Positions 50,952 through 59,160 of a stretch of DNA of 64,000 bases are shown here, in pieces (the first letter of the stretch is position 1; every line of letters begins with the position of its first letter). The stretch comes from Gamsiella multidivaricata (Eukaryota > Mortierellomycota > Mortierellomycetes > Mortierellales > Mortierellaceae). The stretch lies in NCBI RefSeq assembly GCF_025024155.1, contig NW_026251713.1, forward strand, positions 62,001 through 126,000. The letters are read 5' to 3'. The translations under genes and the position numbers were made by a program. The notes under the pieces were generated by a model that had not been told where the DNA came from, ran no database searches, and saw only the letters and a list, made by a program, of their open reading frames with translations.

Positions 50952-52986
50952 CAGTGATGTTGGTTATAGAGTGTTAGGGTGTGCACAGAGAAAAAAGCGA
51001 GGAAGAGTGCATTCCACCATGTCCTCCACCTTCGTAGAATATATAACTCGCCTCATAGTCTACAAGTTCTCTTCTTGACCATATCTCCATAACCAGGTAA
51101 TCTCGAGCAACGGCCATGTTGTGTCATTCTCTCTTTTCGTCCAATTGCTTTACGCCCATCTGCAGCTCGTCCTTTTGGAGCTCGTCCTCTTTTCTTTTTC
51201 GAAATGTGCAAGGCTGCTTGCATGCAATGCTAGACTTTAAGTCATGATGATTAGGGTTTGTCTTATGTAGAAAGAAAAGAAGAGAGAGATTGCCAAATCA
51301 CGATGGGCAATCAATGGTCATAAGCATCAGCAGCATCAGCAACACCACATATTCACCAGAGTCCGTTATACAAGGCTATAGTCTATGGTCTATCCAGACC
51401 GGGTATCCGGAGAATGTCCTGAGATACGTCTTACTCATAGACTAGATACTCATAAGCAATTGCACTCAGTACACTCTTGATGCTCACCTTGCGCATTATC
51501 CAAAGCGCCTTTGCAATTGAGAAACATTTAGAGGTATCGCCACGCGTTTGCTTTTTCAACCTTCTTCCATGATGGTCTGAGAAGTGCATCTGGACTTAAT
51601 TCACATATTTGACGCTCCAAAACTAGGAACTAGGGATTTTTCGATGCACAGGACAAGAGCGACGCGTATGGCGCTGCACGGAAGGTCGTTTGTAGCAGCC
51701 GGCTTCTGAACAATATCTCTGATTGACTAGAAGCCTCACTGCCTACCATGGCAAGAGGCAACGGGGTAATGCGGCGTAGGGGGTCTAATAACGAGTTCTG
51801 TAACTTCTATCATTAGTTCTATTTACAATAGGAGACGCCGCACTATTAGGACTTCGGCGAGGGCGTGCTTCGGTCATCTACTGGTTCGCAGTGCGGGGTC
51901 CTCCTTTAGATCGGAATGTATTAACACAAAAGTAAAACAGACTAGACAGAGATAGAAGGAAATAAATATAGGCTAAATAGTTCGAACTAGGTATATGTTT
52001 CATTGAGAATGACAGGGAGTAGTTGCAAGATACTCACATATATGATGTCCGATGAAGTGAGAAGTCGTGACAATGAAGTCCACCCCTCTGGAGCCGTTGT
52101 ATGGCAATGTTCGCTGATCAGGCCTTCATTGTACCTTTATAATGCCGTTTCACGAGGGTAAGCCGATGACGGATGCTCAACAATGAGACGATCAGAGGGC
52201 GGGGAAACATTGCAATTGATAGTGCAAAGGTGGCGAATGATCAGGCTTGGCATTCTCTGTTGATTGCATCTCGTTGCGTGGGTTGCTGACGACGGCAGTC
52301 AGTACCTGTCGATGATGCGGTGTTATCCGGACAATCTGGACGAATGCATACAGGATATATGTGAAGAAGACTCTGGTTCAGGAACCAGACCGTTTATTCT
52401 TTTATCCTGGAGTGATGCTCTTCCCCGTAATTTAATAGCAAAAGTTCTCATAGGCTTTAGTCCTTTGAAGGTTGACCGCGCTACTTGACTGATTTCCCTA
52501 TCCTCCATTGCATCCCTAGCGACCTATCTGGATTTGCGCCTGCCTCGCGTACGTTGGAAACAGCGATGATGGCGATGTGGGTGGATATCTGTGTCAGGCC
52601 GCGGCAAAGCTGCTTGTATAACACTGATCGTGATTCGCGTCAAGCGACTGGCATCTATCAGTGTGATGGTTCTTTATCAAAGCCTTTTGTTATTGTGGTA
52701 ATGCCTTTTTTTATTGTGGAAAGTCTTTTTTATTGTGGGAAAGCAGACATTGCTTCTCGCCTATAAGTATTCTGCCACACACTTCACAGCTCTCTTCGTT
52801 CATCATCCTTTCTCCTCATTGCCCTTTGCCCGCAGTTCGCTATCCATATACACCTTCACGCTAGATACTATACGCCTGTAGAAAAGGTAATGTACCCTCC
52901 AAGCCTAGCCTTCCATATCTTCAGCGTCCTTACGAGAGGGTTTCGCTAACACTGCTAAGCTTTCAACCCACCATAGTGATCACAGC
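50952..52986. other. 2-kb region upstream of the XPG-Fanzor gene
   Basis: No complete gene is seen. Contains three near-copies of TTTATTGTGGAAAG at 52690-52742 and a short open frame at 52264-52488 of unknown nature. The last 220 bp look like a promoter and leader. Confidence 0.4.
52762..52768 (+). promoter_or_regulatory. TATA-like box of the XPG-Fanzor gene
   Basis: TATAAGT in CGCCTATAAGTATTC, followed by a CT-rich leader (TTCATCATCCTTTCTCC) and the ATG 225 bp downstream. The promoter architecture looks intact, unlike parts of the coding region. Confidence 0.4.
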
Positions 52987-55900
52987 ATGGGCGTAAGAGG
53001 CCTTTACAGTACTCTGAAGAAGCGCGGTTTGGATCCAGTTGCCGTGGATCCTCAAAATTATCAAAACCAAGCTGTTGAGGTTGACCTCTTCGGCGCGTTT
53101 TATGGATCCCTCGTCCGCCAGATTACGGATGATTACGATCCAAGCAAGGTCCGAGCTGTCAGTCTCACGATGGCAGCGCGTTTGGCGAAGGACTTTACCC
53201 CTGCGAAATGTACGATTCACATCGGTGGCGCCCCATCCCAGCAGAAGCGAAACGAGCACATCAGGCGAAAGAACAGACTGACAGCGGACCTCAAGAAGTT
53301 GCAAGCGAACTTGAAAGTCATGAGAACGAAGTCGTCGAACGGCCAATGGACCTCGAAGAGCGTGGTAGCGAAGATCAAGAAGGGCCTCCGTGATGTATAC
53401 AGATTTGATACGGCCAAGCTGACACTCCGGGATGCCTTACAAGAAAAAGGGTTTTATGTCTGCATTTGCAGGACCGAGGCCGACACCTGCATTGCACGCA
53501 CACTGACCATGGCAGCCGGTAGCTTCGCGGTGTCAGCAGATTCCGATCTGTTGATATATCCGTCGGTCACCAAGGTTTTGCGGCCGGTCTTCCACGGCCT
53601 GGCCTATGCGTTATACACCAAGGAGTGTGTTACCAATGCACTTCAGGTCCCCAGTGCAGACTATGTGACGTTGCTGGGCATCGTGTCCAAGAACGACTAT
53701 ACCGAGAACATTCCCGGCCCTGGAATAGTTCGCAACCTGGAGATCATCCGTGCTCTTCCTCAGTCGCCCGATATCCGCCTGATGCTCGGTCCTTACAAAT
53801 TCATGGCAGCCATCAAATCCCACGAGGCTATCGACCAGACCCGATTCAAGCCATCGGAAGACATCTTTTTGGATCTCGAGGAGAAAGTGCTCCAACTGCA
53901 GCCAGGAGATGAGGCCGCCGATGAGGACATGCTCGGTTTTGATTTCAACATTGCATCACCGCAGTTCCGGCACCTCAAGGTGCAACGATTTGCCGTCGCT
54001 GCATATCAGCATGCGAGTAGAAGGTAATCTAAGTGCGACACCATTTCATTCACGTACGTGTTGTACAGACAACAAGTTCTCTAACGCCTTTTGCATGGCG
54101 ATGTATGCGTGTATTTACGTGCGGTTCCCTTCTACGTTGCGAGGAACTCAAAGCGGAACCAGTTCCGTCCGATCTTTCCAGACAAGAAATCGTTCCTACC
54201 ACGAAAATCGATTGACTTCTCGACTGCCGTACCTCACGGTCGCCCACAGCCAAAAGCAAAGCCCCCCGTCAAGACTCGGAAGGTGGTCGTGAAGAAGAAG
54301 AACAAGAAAAAGAGGAAGAAGGGGGCACTGCCGAGGAAACGGAAAGGGGTGGGCTCCGCCGACCCATCGAACCCACGGCCCACTTCTGCAACTGCAGCGG
54401 ACCGCCGCCTCCGCAAGCTGCATATAACCAAGGCACTCACTGTGGGGAGTATCCAGGCCAACGTAAAGCGAATGAATCAGATCTCGGTTGCAGAAAGCAA
54501 GCTCCTTTCAGACAGGCTACGTTCAACGGTCGCAGTCCTTAATGCGATCCAGATGCATATGTACGAGGCCATTGCACTGGATATTGCGCGGCTTGTTCGT
54601 TCTAAAGACACAGCGACAGATGTGACACAGCGGAAGGAGGACATTGCAGACATTCTCGACAGCAAGGCCTTCTACTTTGCACTCAACACACTCTTGTGCA
54701 GTGGTCAAGAAGGACGAGGTTCTCAGGCTGTTCGAGTATCAGTTGCCCCTGCGCGCAGGATGAGCCCTCGAAATACGCCATTGGTACCTGGTGCCCCGCA
54801 ACCGCAAGCACAAGCACAAGCACAAGCACAAGCACAAGCACAAGCACAAGCACATGCACAAGCACAAGCACAAGCACAACCAACAGCCACCCATGCCCGA
54901 CGTGTCTTTGATGCGTACACGACGCTCACCGGCTTTGTCTCCTTTCGCCAACAAGAACCAGAGATGTTCCCTTCGACGGTCTCGAGGCTTGCTGTTGCGG
55001 CAGTCTACAATGCAGTGCGAGTCCATTACTATGGCGCAAAGGTATATTAAAGAGTGTGCAAGATGTAGCCGTTGTGTTCCTTGCTTTTCGGAGCACTAGT
55101 GTTGACCATTAGCTCTTCAACTTTCTTTAATAGTTTTCCGAGAACGAAGAGCGCCCTGAATCTGTCAATCCGATCGACTACTTCTTCGAAAAGAATACCG
55201 AGAAGCGCATGTTTGCAGACTTTGTCAAGGCAAAGTTTGCAGCTGGCTTCGTGTTCTTGTCAGAGGCGGACCTTGTCGATTTATTCTATACAAGCAATAC
55301 AACACGGCCGATTATAGTCCGAATGCTGAGCGATGCAACATCCAACGCTGCGGAAGCCAAGGTCGTCGGCAAGAAAGGGATCCTCATCGAGAAGCTGCTA
55401 TACAGACTGGACCCGGCGACGCGCTTTAACGGGTATTACAGGAAGGTTTCGCTTTAGAGTGACAGACAGTACCACACGACGTTCAAGCTTTGGGGCCTCA
55501 TCTGCACGAACGGACTGGTGTTGCATCTTCTTGCGCATGACACAACGACAACGCGACGCCAAGCACCCCGCCAAAGCATCAGGGCCGATGACGATGATGA
55601 AGGAGAACACGACGACGACGAGGATTTGACCCTGTTCCACGATGTTGACGGTGACTATGACCTCGACGACGCGTTTCTTGAAAGTGGAGGGGGCGAATCT
55701 GGTACAGATCCGGTCGCAGCTGCGGCAGGACCCGCCAAGAAGAAACGCATCACGCTCCCGTCTTCAACGCCAGAAAGTTCAAAGTGGCAGAGGCTGTCAA
55801 TACACCAACTGCCACCCACAGACCCTACTGCGACTGCTTCGTCCTCATCCAGCTTAGAAGCCCCATCCGGTCCAACGTCAGGCGCAGATACGATCGATGT

Positions 55901-56853
55901 CACACGCAACACCATCAACTGGAAGCGAAGTTCAAAGATTCTGGAAAACGTGGAGGTGCGCTTCAACTCTCCTGGTACTTGTCCACCAGGTGATACTGTG
56001 ATAATCGGCATTGACCCGGGTGAGGTTTACACAATGACGGCGACAAGAATCGACCCCGCCTTACCTACGAAAAGAGAGTCTTTACGGATCCGCAGGGCAT
56101 TCCTCTACAGGCCTTACATGCTCTTCAAGCATGTCCTAGAAAAGCAGAAGGCCGCGGCACGCATTGATGTTCTTGAGGCAAGACTGCCCTCATTTACCGT
56201 GGAGAAGATCGAGGAATATCTGGCGTACCTGGAGGTGCCTGGCACGGACGGCACCGCCGCGACCGCCACGAGAGTCCGCTTTTTAACTTTTACAACAGTC
56301 AATGGATGCTAAGGAAGCGCTGGAATCTTCAAAAGGCTCAACAGGCAACGTATGACTACGCAGTTGCGGCCTTGCTTGATCTTGCCTTAGTAAGGACTTT
56401 GTTGGTCAGCCGCTGAGCTCACAGGACGGTGCAAAAGTGGTGTTTGCGATAGGATTGGGCTCTTTTGATTCGCAAACTGGCCTGCCAAGCAAGCATAGCG
56501 CACTCGAGAAGAAATTTATCGGCAAGGTAAGAAGAACAAAAAAAAGTGTGGCATACCATCTCTCATCCGCACTGCAACTTTTTCTCATCTGTTTATTTGT
56601 TCCTTGATGCTGCTGATAGGCAAAGGCTATGGGACACACTGTGGTCGGGGTGCACGAGTACTACACCAGTGCTCGATGCCCTCGTAACCAGTGCATGGCG
56701 TTCTTGGAGTCCGACAAGAGGCGGTCAAAGTACTGCCGAAGCTGTCAAATGTACTTTGATCGCGATATTGTCGGCTCTAAGAACATTGCCACTGTGTGTC
56801 TGTCGCAAATCCAGAACCAGTGCCGGCCTGCCAAGTTCATGCCATCAACATAA
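52987..56853 (+). CDS. XPG/FEN-type nuclease fused to a Fanzor/TnpB-type RuvC nuclease
   Basis: Exon 1 (52987-54023) encodes a complete FEN/XPG fold: MGVRGLYSTLKKRGL, VEVDLFGAFYG, XPG-I with E164 and D166 (RTEADTCIA) and D185/D187 (SADSDLLIYP), and the H3TH-like NDYTENIPGPG with D237. A GT-AG intron (54024-54143) joins in frame to a long exon: a lysine-rich NLS-like stretch, then the Fanzor N-terminal domain (from KALTVGSIQANVKRM), a (QA)n tract, and, after intron 55042-55133, FEKNTEKRMFADF... and FKLWGLICTNGLVLHLL. RuvC-I is IIGIDPGEVYTM (D at 56013). FNFYNSQWMLRKRWNLQKAQ is the helical region. The zinc ribbon is C-x4-C/C-x2-C (56677-56745). RuvC-III is FDRDIVGSKNIA. Problems: an in-frame TAG at 55455 and a frame change near 56250, so it may be a damaged copy or may use very short introns. 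Confidence 0.72.
54389..56853 (+). mobile_element. Fanzor (TnpB/OrfB-like) module
   Basis: Marks the RNA-guided-nuclease-like part. Family knowledge: Fanzor proteins are eukaryotic TnpB relatives with a WED-like N-terminus, a split RuvC and a zinc ribbon (OrfB_Zn_ribbon), and bind a guide RNA encoded near their 3' end. Seen here: an Asp in IDPGEV, four Cys and the DRDIVGSKN block, plus the typical FYNS/RRxxxxKA helices. The last intron (56527-56620) has normal GTAAGA...GATAG borders. A 35-nt GT-AG interval at 56390-56424 must be removed to keep DLAL-DGAKVVFAIGLGSF in frame. Confidence 0.75.
54804..54880 (+). repeat. (CAAGCA)n hexamer repeat inside the gene
   Basis: About 12 units with one CATGCA variant, read in frame as alternating Gln-Ala. 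Because the unit is 6 bp, changes in copy number keep the frame. Confidence 0.85.
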
Positions 56854-56857
56854 TCAT

Positions 56858-56875
56858 AGGGGGTCGGAACCCTCT
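56858..56875 (+). ncRNA. candidate structured 3' RNA end of the Fanzor locus (hairpin)
   Basis: Five bases after the stop codon, AGGGGGT (56858-56864) pairs with ACCCTCT (56869-56875) around a CGGA tetraloop, with one G-U pair. TnpB and Fanzor guide RNAs are typically encoded over the 3' end of the nuclease gene and just beyond. The stem itself is seen; the role is an inference. It could also be a simple mRNA 3' hairpin. Confidence 0.35.
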
Positions 56876-58099
56876 TTCAAAATTTGTAAGTTCAACATAC
56901 AAAAAATAGCGTGCATGAACACCCAACCCATTCTGAATTCTAACCAGCCATTTTTTTACTTGATTTGGGTGATTTCTGGTAGACAGATACTGTAGCAGAG
57001 CAGCCTAGCGTTCTTTTTCTTAAGGATCCATGATGGATGGGCCCACCCAAACAATCTAGTGACATATCTTGAATAGCTTACTTTCATTTGTATTTGCTTA
57101 ATAAAATCGCTCTTCCCGCTAGTTCCAATGCTATGCCATGGTCTAAATATAAGTGTTTCTAGTTGTGTAAAGGGTATAACCATCAAAGGCCTTTAATGCT
57201 GGACCTGTGTAGTTGGTTGCATGGCTGTAGTGCAAATTTGTAGTGGCCTTTGCCATGCCCAGATTAGGAAAATTGAGGCATGTGGGGGAAAAGAAACGCG
57301 TCGCTGTGCAACAGTCTTTTATCAAGTGTACTAGCTCCATACAACCATTTCCCCATCGTTCCCATATCTTGCCTCAGCTATACAGCTTCCATTCTTGCCT
57401 CAAATGTACGATTTCCATACCCTCCTTTATATCTTTATATTTACCATCTCATTTCTTCTTTTTTTTTTTTTTTTTTTTTTTTTTTTGTAGCACTCCATAG
57501 ATAGGAGTGGAAGGACCTTCCCCCATTGGAGGAACAGGAAGTGGAGGCTGCGACCGTAGACATAGCTTTAGTCCAGGATGCAAACATAAATATCCTCAGT
57601 ATTTATTCTCCTATATCTGCGCAGCCCCCCAGGGATTCACATGCGAAGCGTTTCGACACGGCTTCTAGTCCACCCACAATTCCGTCGTCACTAACGGAGT
57701 CAGTCGTCACAGTGCTCGTCCGCGCGCTCCACAAGACGATGTCGCGGACATGATGCCACTGTCGTTACGAGCAACGATTACACAAGCCATGTGCCAGATC
57801 AGTCGTTCGCAAAGAATCTAGTCGTGCTATACGGATATAATTCAGACGACAAATAGGGTATCCTGGATCGGTATTGCACCCAGATAGGAGTGAGCAACGA
57901 GATGCTCGAATTGTCCAAGTAAATTTCGTTCGACAAGGCCGAGGCCTTGGAAGAGGAGTCGAGGCTACTGACACGAAAATGAAATAAAATAAATATATAT
58001 TGTGGAAAGCGTAACCAGACACCGCCAAGAGCAAGTGTCCTTTGTTGCACAGCATGCGCGATGGTTTGATGTGTTTTTACTTTTTTCTTTTATTGTTCT
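56876..58099. other. 1.2-kb stretch between the two Fanzor loci, probable relic at its right side
   Basis: T-run at 57461-57486 (preceded by a CT-rich block). The part 57526-57990 has broken plus-strand frames (LTESVVTVLVRALHKT, MPLSLRATITQAMCQISRSQ) that may be the N-terminal remains of the decayed Fanzor at 58100. No intact gene. Confidence 0.35.
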
Positions 58100-59160
58100 A
58101 TGGCACTGATTCTTCCTTTTTTCTTCTCATTTAGATCTATGACCGTCAGCAAGACCCCAGCAGAGTCCACTAGGTCCAAGGTGAAGTACCTGACCGAAGC
58201 GATTCTGAGTCCAGATGTACTGCAGGAGGAATTTGACGATCAGGAGAGCTACATCGTGCTCGCCATCTACCCAAGTATTAAGAGTACCGTAGCAGCCGTA
58301 GTTGTGGGTCCACTTATGCCTGAAAGTTCCTGAAGCCCGTCCTTGCCCAAAGGAATACCATACCTGGAACAGCCAAAGACGCACAGAACTGCTGAGGCGC
58401 CTCAAAAAAGACAAATGAATTGAGGCTGCAGAGGACATGGCGAGCATCAGCGGTCTAGAAACAAGGATTCGACCAGTGAGGTGTTTCGATCCTCAAGAAA
58501 TCGAATTGATTCAGCAGTTCGGGAAGCTCAGGGATACATACCAGCAGCATGCAGACTCAGTCTTTACGGTCGAGAAGGAGATAAGGGTGTTCTGCGGATC
58601 GGAGGGACTGAAGGTTGCTCGTTATCGCAAGAAGCAAGGAGAGAAGATCGAGGTAGGGCGTGCAATCAATGGGATGCTCAGGGCAGCCCAGAAGGGAGCG
58701 AAGGTTGGTCAGAGAAAACCTATGGCCTTCATCGGCGATGGCGACTTCAAGTGCAAAAGCGGAGGACCGGTCAAGTTGCACAAGCTCGTACCAAGACCTT
58801 AGGTTCAGACATGCGGAAGCTGCAGAAGCGCTTTGTTCGCACTGATGAAGGCTGGCACGATAAGCCTAGGTCCATGACATTCTACTGATATGAATATTGC
58901 TGTGTGCACAGGCCGCCAGTGAAGGAATGCTGGTATGCTGCGTCACGAATTCCGAACGATGATATCTTTCTGCCAGAGAGTCCAGACTCAGGGCTGCTCA
59001 GTCATCTGTCCTGACCTGACTTGTGGTGGTTTTCAGCCATCGACATATGACGCAGTACACAAGTTGAGCCCCAAGGCCGGCCTCCAGTGCGGTCGGGAGC
59101 ACGACACTGCCAGAACATGGCTAATGCTACCTTCAACGGGTAAAGGACTCTAAGTGGCCT
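58100..59160 (+). pseudogene. decayed second Fanzor copy
   Basis: Pieces in different frames line up in the order of a Fanzor C-terminal half: DQESYIVLAIYPSIKSTVAA (RuvC-I, with Tyr at 58268 where Asp is expected), EYHTWNSQRRTELLRRLKKD (then a stop), a helical part ending LKVARYRKKQGEKIEVGRAI, AFIGDGDFKCKSGG, a Cys-containing remnant (SVICPDLTCGG) and LQCGREHD followed in another frame by NMANATF, the RuvC-III/zinc-ribbon area. At least three frame changes or stops are needed. It is more distant from the 53-57 kb copy than a local duplicate would be, so it is probably a separate family. Confidence 0.6.

What the first reader, a model, noticed from the sequence alone, without database searches (positions are those of the whole stretch)
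52987..56853. An XPG/FEN nuclease and a Fanzor RuvC nuclease in one predicted gene
A complete FEN/XPG domain with all expected acidic residues reads, through a splice that keeps frame and a lysine-rich linker, straight into a Fanzor with RuvC-I Asp, zinc ribbon and RuvC-III. I know of Fanzor proteins carried by several transposon types, but not of a fusion to a FEN-type flap nuclease. If real, an RNA-guided cutter would be coupled to a flap- or branch-processing nuclease, which could trim the cut ends or act in element homing and repair.
Basis: partly seen in the sequence, partly recalled or inferred. Interest (0 to 1): 0.92.

Follow-up and report, generated by a model that had tools for sequence, protein, structure and literature searches.

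The report
Fanzor fused to XPG flap nuclease
In Mortierella-type soil fungi, an RNA-guided DNA cutter (Fanzor) is joined in one predicted gene to a second, DNA-repair-type nuclease (XPG/FEN); the copy in this window is a decayed member of a large, apparently undescribed family of such two-nuclease proteins.

Summary
The XPG-Fanzor arrangement is real and not peculiar to this locus. The genome is that of Gamsiella multidivaricata. In it, 65 of 106 XPG-like loci have a Fanzor domain <5 kb downstream on the same strand; controls: 2 of 106 (upstream), 7 of 106 (opposite strand). Of 57 long database proteins found with the Fanzor part alone, 36 match the XPG profile, 31 over at least 100 of its 251 positions. 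39 predicted proteins from nine other Mortierellaceae genera carry both domains. Both active sites are conserved. The linker is conserved, without a consistent Met, and splices in frame in a distant lineage. The window copy is a pseudogene: in-frame TAG, frame breaks, and Gly for one XPG Asp, so 'all expected acidic residues' holds for 6 of 7. Best reading: a transposon-like gene for a two-nuclease RNA-guided enzyme in which XPG cuts or trims DNA that the Fanzor R-loop opens. That mechanism is inferred: no RNA data, guide RNA, activity or structure (queue full in 26 tries). No paper on it turned up in the library searched.

The parts
51777..52986 (+). 5' part of the repeat unit, upstream of the ATG; no gene assigned; left end unresolved (similarity of copies begins about 51770-51777 at TAGGGGGTCTAA, but subsets of copies share sequence further left)
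52987..54023 (+). exon 1: XPG/FEN nuclease domain (core residues 1-257 = 52987-53757) and its tail; the Asp-80 position is Gly in this copy
54024..54143 (+). intron 1 (GT-AG in 14 of 14 close copies); if unspliced, the XPG ORF ends at TAA 54025-54027
54144..55041 (+). exon 2: lysine-rich linker and start of the Fanzor REC region; first in-frame Met lies inside the conserved REC start
55042..55133 (+). intron 2 (GT-AG in 13 of 14 close copies)
55134..56526 (+). exon 3: rest of the REC/WED-like part and RuvC-I (catalytic Asp codon 56013-56015, motif IDPGE); decayed here by TAG 55455-55457 and frame breaks near 56300 and 56390
56527..56619 (+). intron 3 (GT-AG in 11 of 13 close copies with letters)
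56620..56853 (+). exon 4: RuvC-II alternative Glu (codon 56656-56658, six residues before the first zinc Cys), zinc ribbon, RuvC-III Asp (codon 56764-56766), stop TAA
   Evidence: codon positions counted by hand
56854..56994 (+). conserved 3' non-coding stretch ending at ...GGTAGACAGATACTGTA; 8 of 9 copies aligned reach this end; candidate place of a guide RNA, not shown

Best explanation
The locus is a decayed copy of a multicopy, transposon-like gene that encodes one long protein: an N-terminal XPG/FEN (Rad2-superfamily) nuclease, a conserved basic linker, and a C-terminal Fanzor (REC, split RuvC, zinc ribbon). Shown: one gene order in many genomes, a conserved linker, two conserved active sites, and in the close family constraint on the XPG core at least as strong as on the Fanzor parts. 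Inferred from the known families: a guide RNA from the 3' end of the element directs the Fanzor to a DNA target and opens an R-loop; RuvC cuts; the tethered XPG nuclease, whose superfamily cuts single/double-strand junctions, bubbles and 5' flaps, cuts the R-loop edge or trims the resulting ends. This would favour double-strand breakage and repair that copies or keeps the element. Confidence by step: fusion architecture 0.93; both nucleases active in intact members 0.75; RNA-guided 0.75; XPG acts on DNA at the R-loop or cut ends 0.45; purpose is persistence or spread of the element 0.5.
For: Fusion: 39 of 63 database proteins match both profiles; XPG covers at least 200 of 251 positions in 23 of the 39, 100-199 in 11, under 100 in 5. 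Of 57 found with the Fanzor part alone, 36 match XPG, 31 over at least 100 positions. Of 21 with RuvC but no XPG match, 12 match the fusion-linker profile. Co-location 65/106 against 2/106 and 7/106. A profile of the fused proteins matches Rad2/FEN1 at one end and TnpB-like L79 and LaTranC at the other. In-frame GT-AG splicing from XPG to linker in L051, 28% identical to the window in the XPG part; database model P0002 has the same joins. Linker conserved without a consistent Met; first in-frame Met of exon 2 lies after the REC start in 13 of 14 close copies. Trees of XPG and RuvC correlate (Mantel r 0.62, permuted maximum 0.31). Active sites: XPG D33 26/27, D80 32/33, E164 38/38, D166 39/39, D185 39/40, D187 38/39, D237 43/43, K87 32/33, R94 32/34; RuvC D 51/52, E(alt) 45/48, D 45/46. 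Pooled dN/dS lowest in the XPG core (0.35 against 0.52-0.63). Mechanism: PMC7286691 (passages) says purified XPG cut the 3' R-loop flank (citing Tian and Alt 2000), the flank where single-RuvC Cas12 enzymes cut the target strand.
Against: No RNA, protein or activity data. Database proteins are gene predictions, some labelled partial; a few drop XPG (P0053) or the XPG active-site part (P0001). The protein searches admitted only proteins of 0.55-1.75 times the query's length, so shorter, unfused Fanzors could not appear and 36 of 57 is not an unbiased rate. 9 of 21 RuvC proteins without XPG also lack the linker match, among them the long models P0048 and P0060 and the Umbelopsis protein P0061. 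41 of 106 XPG loci and 55 of 120 Fanzor loci in the genome stay unpaired. The nine close Gamsiella copies that I assembled each carry at least one lesion. No guide RNA was found: the 3' region folds little better than shuffles (z -1.06). XPG and RuvC trees share only 8 of 16 splits. No TIR or target-site duplication was seen and no transposase was systematically sought, so mobility rests on dispersal and a sharp right end. No structure model.
Confidence: 0.72

Rival explanations
1. Two neighbouring genes of one mobile element, an XPG gene and a Fanzor gene, merged by gene predictors.
For: In the window family the XPG ORF meets a TAA that overlaps the proposed donor; some gene models start in the linker without XPG (P0053).
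Against: No in-frame Met upstream of the conserved REC start in exon 2 in 13 of 14 close copies; the linker is conserved across deep lineages with no consistent Met; intron-1 donor and acceptor kept in 14 of 14; gene models from nine other genera give the same fusion.
Confidence: 0.06
2. The fused XPG-like domain acts on RNA (processing the guide RNA) or only binds DNA, rather than cutting DNA at the target.
For: Weak matches to XRN_N and Mut7-C models, below Pfam cut-offs; no substrate data.
Against: Best matches are the DNA nucleases Rad2, XPG, FEN1, EXO1, GEN1; the seven acidic positions are conserved, which argues against a pure binding role; the NDY..NI..LG stretch aligns with Rad2/FEN H3TH sequence.
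Confidence: 0.22
3. The gene family is a host genome-defence or surveillance gene family rather than a mobile element's gene.
For: Very many copies per genome, presence across a family of fungi, no TIR seen.
Against: Close copies lie at different places with a common right end; many copies carry stops; known Fanzors sit in transposons (PMC3627910, section 12 and passages).
Confidence: 0.12
4. A relic of no current function anywhere: an old fusion kept only as decaying repeats.
For: The window copy is broken, and each of the nine close Gamsiella copies assembled here carries a lesion.
Against: Long predicted proteins with intact residues in many genera; XPG core dN/dS 0.35.
Confidence: 0.05

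Closest known systems
Fanzor1 proteins of fungi and other eukaryotes (e.g. SpuFz1; Bao and Jurka 2013, Saito 2023, Yoon 2023)
   Same: C-terminal RuvC and zinc ribbon with alternative Glu six residues before the zinc ribbon (criterion from PMC10711439 section 23); dispersed copies; a Mucor Fanzor family also has a common 3' part, differing 5' parts and no TIRs (MCi-2, PMC3627910 section 12)
   Different: An added XPG/FEN nuclease of about 250 residues and a linker at the N terminus, many models 1100-1335 aa; RuvC-I motif DLG in 32 of 52 rows, DPG in only 6, though the window family has DPG; no paper of the library holds both Fanzor and XPG, and the term searches in three Fanzor papers (those, which differed from paper to paper) showed no flap nuclease or FEN
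Rad2/XPG, FEN1, EXO1, GEN1 (Rad2 superfamily nucleases)
   Same: Profile match to Rad2 E 1e-11 to 1e-14; seven acidic positions; Asp-Lys-Arg spacing 7 and 14 as in FEN1 D86-K93-R100 (FEN1 numbering recalled); H3TH-like NDY motif
   Different: Fused to an RNA-guided nuclease; EAD instead of EAEA (FEN1 motif recalled; Rad2 EAEA); other members only 23-29% identical to the window domain
TnpB / Cas12 single-RuvC nucleases
   Same: RuvC and zinc ribbon; NCBIfam guided_TnpB E 2.8e-9, 1.8e-9, 9.6e-11 for three proteins, below that model's curated cut-off
   Different: Cas12 enzymes use a single RuvC site (PMC7286691 passages); this family carries two nuclease active sites in one chain, a parallel to Cas9's two nucleases (parallel is inference)

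Membership tests
Fanzor | RuvC D-E-D triad in three split segments | tested here: met
   51/52, 45/48, 45/46 rows; the three codons are present in the window, but its reading frame is broken between them
Fanzor | Alternative RuvC-II Glu six residues before the zinc ribbon | tested here: met
   window VHE-YYTSAR-C in exon 4; criterion
Fanzor | DPG in RuvC-I | tested here: inconclusive
   Window family and P0001 have DPG; of 52 relatives' rows 32 have DLG and 6 DPG
Fanzor | Zinc ribbon (TNB, PF07282) | tested here: met
   window E 2.4e-10, above cut-off; 109 places in the genome
Fanzor | REC and WED lobe folds | not tested
   no structure job started (26 tries)
Fanzor | Associated guide (omega) RNA and RNA-guided cleavage | tested here: inconclusive
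   3' stretch shared and sharply ended but folding z -1.06; activity not testable here
Rad2/XPG/FEN superfamily | XPG-N and XPG-I sequence family | tested here: met
   profile E 1e-11 to 1e-14 to Rad2, also FEN1, XPG, EXO1; XPG_I in 10 of 11 members scanned at E<=0.1, best 1.1e-8; the window exon alone is below Pfam cut-offs
Rad2/XPG/FEN superfamily | Seven active-site acidic residues | tested here: met
   met across the family with single exceptions; the window copy has 6 of 7 (Gly at position 80)
Rad2/XPG/FEN superfamily | H3TH DNA-binding motif and helical gateway Lys/Arg | tested here: met
   by sequence only: NDY..NI..LG aligned to Rad2; K87 32/33 and R94 32/34; equivalence to FEN1 K93 and R100 rests on recalled numbering
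Rad2/XPG/FEN superfamily | Structure-specific DNA cleavage | not testable with these tools
   needs biochemistry
Transposable element | Defined ends, target-site duplication or TIR, transposase | tested here: inconclusive
   sharp right end, unresolved left end, no TSD or TIR seen by eye; a transposase was not systematically sought

The most novel reading that the evidence does not exclude
An old, family-wide class of natural two-nuclease RNA-guided enzymes: the Fanzor finds and opens the target, RuvC cuts, and the tethered XPG/FEN nuclease cuts the 3' edge of the R-loop or trims the ends, a eukaryotic solution parallel to Cas9's two active sites. It may predate Mortierellomycota: the Umbelopsis (Mucoromycota) protein P0061 starts within a stretch that resembles the same linker by eye, although the linker profile did not reach E 0.01 there.
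Probability: 0.4. Interest if true: 0.93.

Novelty: new variant of a known kind. Interest (0 to 1): 0.84.

Why it matters
TnpB, Cas12 and Fanzor nucleases are, to my knowledge, described with a single RuvC active site. A conserved natural fusion with a flap/bubble nuclease suggests that evolution coupled RNA-guided cutting with end or R-loop processing, a coupling that editing laboratories now try artificially (FEN1 with prime editors, PMC12386499, seen as the start of its abstract in the listing). It gives a concrete system for asking what Fanzors do for their elements, and a set of predicted proteins with both active sites from many fungi to test.

Tried and rejected
Rejected: chance juxtaposition (controls); merger of two genes as the main reading; a single-genome oddity. 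A viral source was not found: one pattern scan of viral contigs with P0005 gave no relative and two Thermus phages matched only the zinc-ribbon end. Led nowhere: Rfam (one match, far below its family's threshold); folding of the 3' stretch; element ends (right end sharp, left end variable, no TIR or TSD seen); the first protein search scored only the 8000 candidates sharing most words, many probably low-complexity, and gave one hit.

Limits of the counts: genome counts are lower bounds (capped candidate lists) and fragments can count twice. Coordinates were typed from the tables (of 96 and 97 only places not already listed, a few fragments left out), plus one place read from L037. The upstream control counts distances of 1-5 kb. 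E-values are for sets of 63-65 proteins and (59, 65, 132) iterated profiles; the weakest XPG match counted is 22 residues (P0016). The 39 fused proteins include 'partial' records. One search counted 35 of 57 with both domains; one search gives 36 of 57 with XPG (P0062 lacks a RuvC profile match). dN/dS pools all pairs, includes decayed copies and segmental duplicates and has no significance test. Copies are read in the window's alignment columns.

Papers: PMC3627910 passages and section 12; PMC10711439 passages and section 23; PMC10432273 passages; PMC7286691 passages; all others as search listings only. One search listed 40 of 82 papers that hold 'Fanzor', of which I opened three. Searches behind 'no paper found': Fanzor, XPG: 0 papers; Fanzor, Mortierella: 0; 0; Mortierell, TnpB: 0; TnpB, XPG: 1, the Cas12a study; TnpB, flap endonuclease, eukaryotic: 1, PMC12719977, not opened; 467 papers hold two of six terms, 15 listed, none of these with Fanzor. 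The 2023 Science Advances survey of Fanzors (recalled, not seen) did not appear in the listings, so a mention there cannot be excluded.
Full report
WHAT IS IN THE WINDOW. On the + strand an ORF from 52987 encodes 'MGVRGLYSTLKKRG...', followed by an intron 54024-54143, a lysine-rich exon (54144-55041), an intron, an exon with RuvC-I 'IGIDPGE' (55134-56526), an intron and a last exon 56620-56853 with the zinc ribbon. Pfam sees the zinc ribbon clearly (PF07282, 2.4e-10) and the XPG domain only weakly (XPG_N E 0.03, below cut-off) when the window exon is scanned alone. 'EAD...SADSDLLIY...NDYTENIPGPG' resembles the XPG-I/H3TH pattern (pattern recalled; membership tested below).

THE WINDOW COPY IS DECAYED. 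An in-frame TAG stands at 55455-55457, where 12 of 12 other close copies with letters there read CAG. The frame breaks near 56,300 and again near 56,390, where some sibling copies have open exon-3 frames of 512-520 aa. XPG residue 80 is Gly, where 32 of 33 aligned domains (the window is the one exception) and 8 of 8 other close copies with letters have Asp. Each of the nine close copies that I assembled, this one included, shows at least one stop, deletion, insertion or lost splice site; five further close copies were read only in part.

A LARGE FAMILY IN THIS GENOME. The window lies in a 37.5 Mb assembly. XPG exon 1 finds 88 places, PF07282 finds 109. A first count gave 53 of 78 merged XPG loci with a zinc-ribbon hit within 6 kb downstream on the same strand, at distances mostly 2.5-3.4 kb. 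With two further XPG queries and further Fanzor hits, 65 of 106 XPG loci and 65 of 120 Fanzor loci are paired within 5 kb. The controls are 2 of 106 with the Fanzor 1-5 kb upstream and 7 of 106 on the opposite strand. 41 XPG loci and 55 Fanzor loci stay unpaired. Some unpaired loci may be fragments or pairs whose partner was not scored; I did not resolve them.

THE FUSION IN OTHER GENOMES. A search with a joined window-family model gave one protein, EMPS_10588 of Entomortierella parvispora, with the same domain order but with the XPG active-site part missing from its model. A search with the XPG part of a distant Gamsiella copy gave 7 proteins, from Gamsiella, Linnemannia and Haplosporangium. 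A search with residues 740-1140 (Fanzor part) of Linnemannia zychae P0005 gave 57 proteins, 56 from Mortierellaceae genera and one from Umbelopsis. These searches admit only proteins of 0.55-1.75 times the query's length, so short unfused Fanzors could not appear. Profiles over all 63 proteins find both domains in 39, from nine genera other than Gamsiella. XPG covers at least 200 of 251 profile positions in 23 of the 39, 100-199 in 11 and fewer in 5. Of the 57 found with the Fanzor part, 36 match XPG, 31 over at least 100 positions. Nineteen proteins are near complete in both domains. Of the 21 with RuvC but no XPG match, 12 match the XPG-Fanzor linker profile, 11 of them starting at residues 1-26 and P0017 at 64, consistent with truncated models; 9 do not, among them the long models P0048 and P0060 and Umbelopsis P0061. 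P0053 comes from a Gamsiella contig of the length on which XPG exons lie just upstream of the Fanzor part.

ONE PROTEIN, NOT TWO. In L051, 28% identical to the window in the XPG part, two GT-AG introns join XPG, tail and linker in frame, and the database model agrees. The stretch between XPG and REC is conserved across deep lineages (N..RTVD.P...R.RYSFK.R...H.PP) with no consistent Met. In the window family the first in-frame Met of exon 2 falls after the conserved REC start in 13 of 14 copies, and the intron-1 splice sites are kept in 14 of 14. XPG and RuvC trees of the 19 proteins correlate (Mantel r 0.62; largest of 2000 permutations 0.31), but share only 8 of 16 splits, so some exchange, noise or annotation error is present. 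Pooled dN/dS in the close family is 0.35 for the XPG core, 0.63 for its tail, 0.56, 0.52 and 0.59 for the later parts.

IDENTITY OF THE TWO DOMAINS. A profile of the fused proteins matches Rad2 (4q0r, 1.6e-14), FEN1, XPG, EXO1 and GEN1 at its start, and TnpB-like protein L79 (9b0l, 9.2e-5) and LaTranC (4.6e-4) at its end; a profile of the XPG core alone gives Rad2 1.1e-11. Three single proteins (P0029, P0005, P0035) match both FEN (4.8e-4 to 1.5e-3) and guided_TnpB (2.8e-9 to 9.6e-11) models of NCBIfam, all below the curated cut-offs. XPG positions: D33 26/27, D80 32/33, E164 38/38, D166 39/39, D185 39/40, D187 38/39, D237 43/43, K87 32/33, R94 32/34. K87 and R94 lie 7 and 14 residues after D80, the spacing of FEN1 D86-K93-R100 (recalled). 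RuvC: D 51/52, alternative E 45/48 six residues before the zinc ribbon, D 45/46, zinc cysteines 47/48, 45/49, 44/45, 42/45. By the criteria of PMC10711439 (section 23) the alternative Glu is met. The DPG motif is met in the window family, but of 52 relatives' rows only 6 have it and 32 have DLG.

REPEAT STRUCTURE. Close copies share about 5.2 kb, mostly at 90-97% identity. Of nine right ends aligned, eight run to ...GGTAGACAGATACTGTA (window 56994) and then depart; C139 and C171 share their right flank (segmental duplicates), and C27 departs earlier. The left end varies between subsets. The stretch 56854-56985 occurs in 17 hits at 16 places, one of them (C99) a right-end piece of 66 bases. No TIR or target-site duplication was seen. 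Bao and Jurka described a Mucor Fanzor family with a common 3' part, varying 5' parts and no TIRs (PMC3627910 section 12), which is similar. The 3' stretch is where a guide RNA would be expected, but it folds little better than shuffles (z -1.06), so a guide RNA is not shown.

HOW IT MOST LIKELY WORKS. Inference: guided by an RNA from its element, the Fanzor half opens an R-loop; RuvC cuts; the XPG half, tethered by a basic linker of roughly 200-350 residues, cuts at the R-loop edge or trims the ends. PMC7286691 (passages) notes that purified human XPG robustly cut the 3' flank of an R-loop (citing Tian and Alt 2000), and that Cas12 enzymes with a single RuvC cut the target strand in that flank. 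A tethered XPG would thus find its substrate at the Fanzor target. Rivals are processing of the guide RNA, a mere binding role, a host defence role, and no current function; see the rival list.

NOVELTY. No paper in the searched library holds Fanzor with XPG, Fanzor with Mortierella or TnpB with Mortierell-. The one paper with TnpB and XPG is the Cas12a R-loop study. The library lacks most subscription journals. The proteins are in public databases under names such as 'hypothetical protein', 'Rad2 nuclease', 'putative transposase' and 'Cas12f1-like TNB domain-containing'. I class it as a new variant of a known kind: a Fanzor with a second, fused nuclease.

NOT DONE. Structure prediction never started (26 tries). 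No transcript data exist in these tools.

Noticed in passing
window 58070-58333: A second short ORF downstream, with a RuvC-I-like string but Tyr in the Asp position (YIVLAIYPSIKSTVAAVVV, resemblance by eye); 7 places in the genome including itself. Not identified.
   Followed up: partly
C27:36741-46271 (L034) and C93:1030576-1039572 (L045): The C27 copy has about 2.9 kb inserted in the XPG exon; 871 bp of it are 99% identical, in the other orientation, to a piece within the C93 copy: another repeat nested in these elements.
   Followed up: no
C93:676518-680675 (L043): XPG part 91% identical to Podila verticillata P0010, while the later parts are 68-83%: high for different genera; horizontal transfer or strong constraint.
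   Followed up: no
C99:392670-392735: 66 bases of the element's 3' region (to the end of the searched stretch) occur on a contig for which searches list no Fanzor or XPG hit: a possible solo right end.
   Followed up: no
window 54800-54880: A (CAAGCA)n-like run encoding Gln-Ala repeats in exon 2 differs in length among copies.
   Followed up: no
protein P0060 (Linnemannia hyalina KI688_006789, 1409 aa): Carries PF20147 as well as the Fanzor zinc ribbon in its precomputed Pfam list; I recall PF20147 as a Crinkler-type N-terminal domain. Possibly a second kind of fusion or a gene-model merger.
   Followed up: no
protein P0061 (Umbelopsis ramanniana): Starts within sequence resembling the XPG-Fanzor linker by eye (linker profile below threshold), so an unannotated XPG exon may lie upstream, outside Mortierellomycota.
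   Followed up: partly
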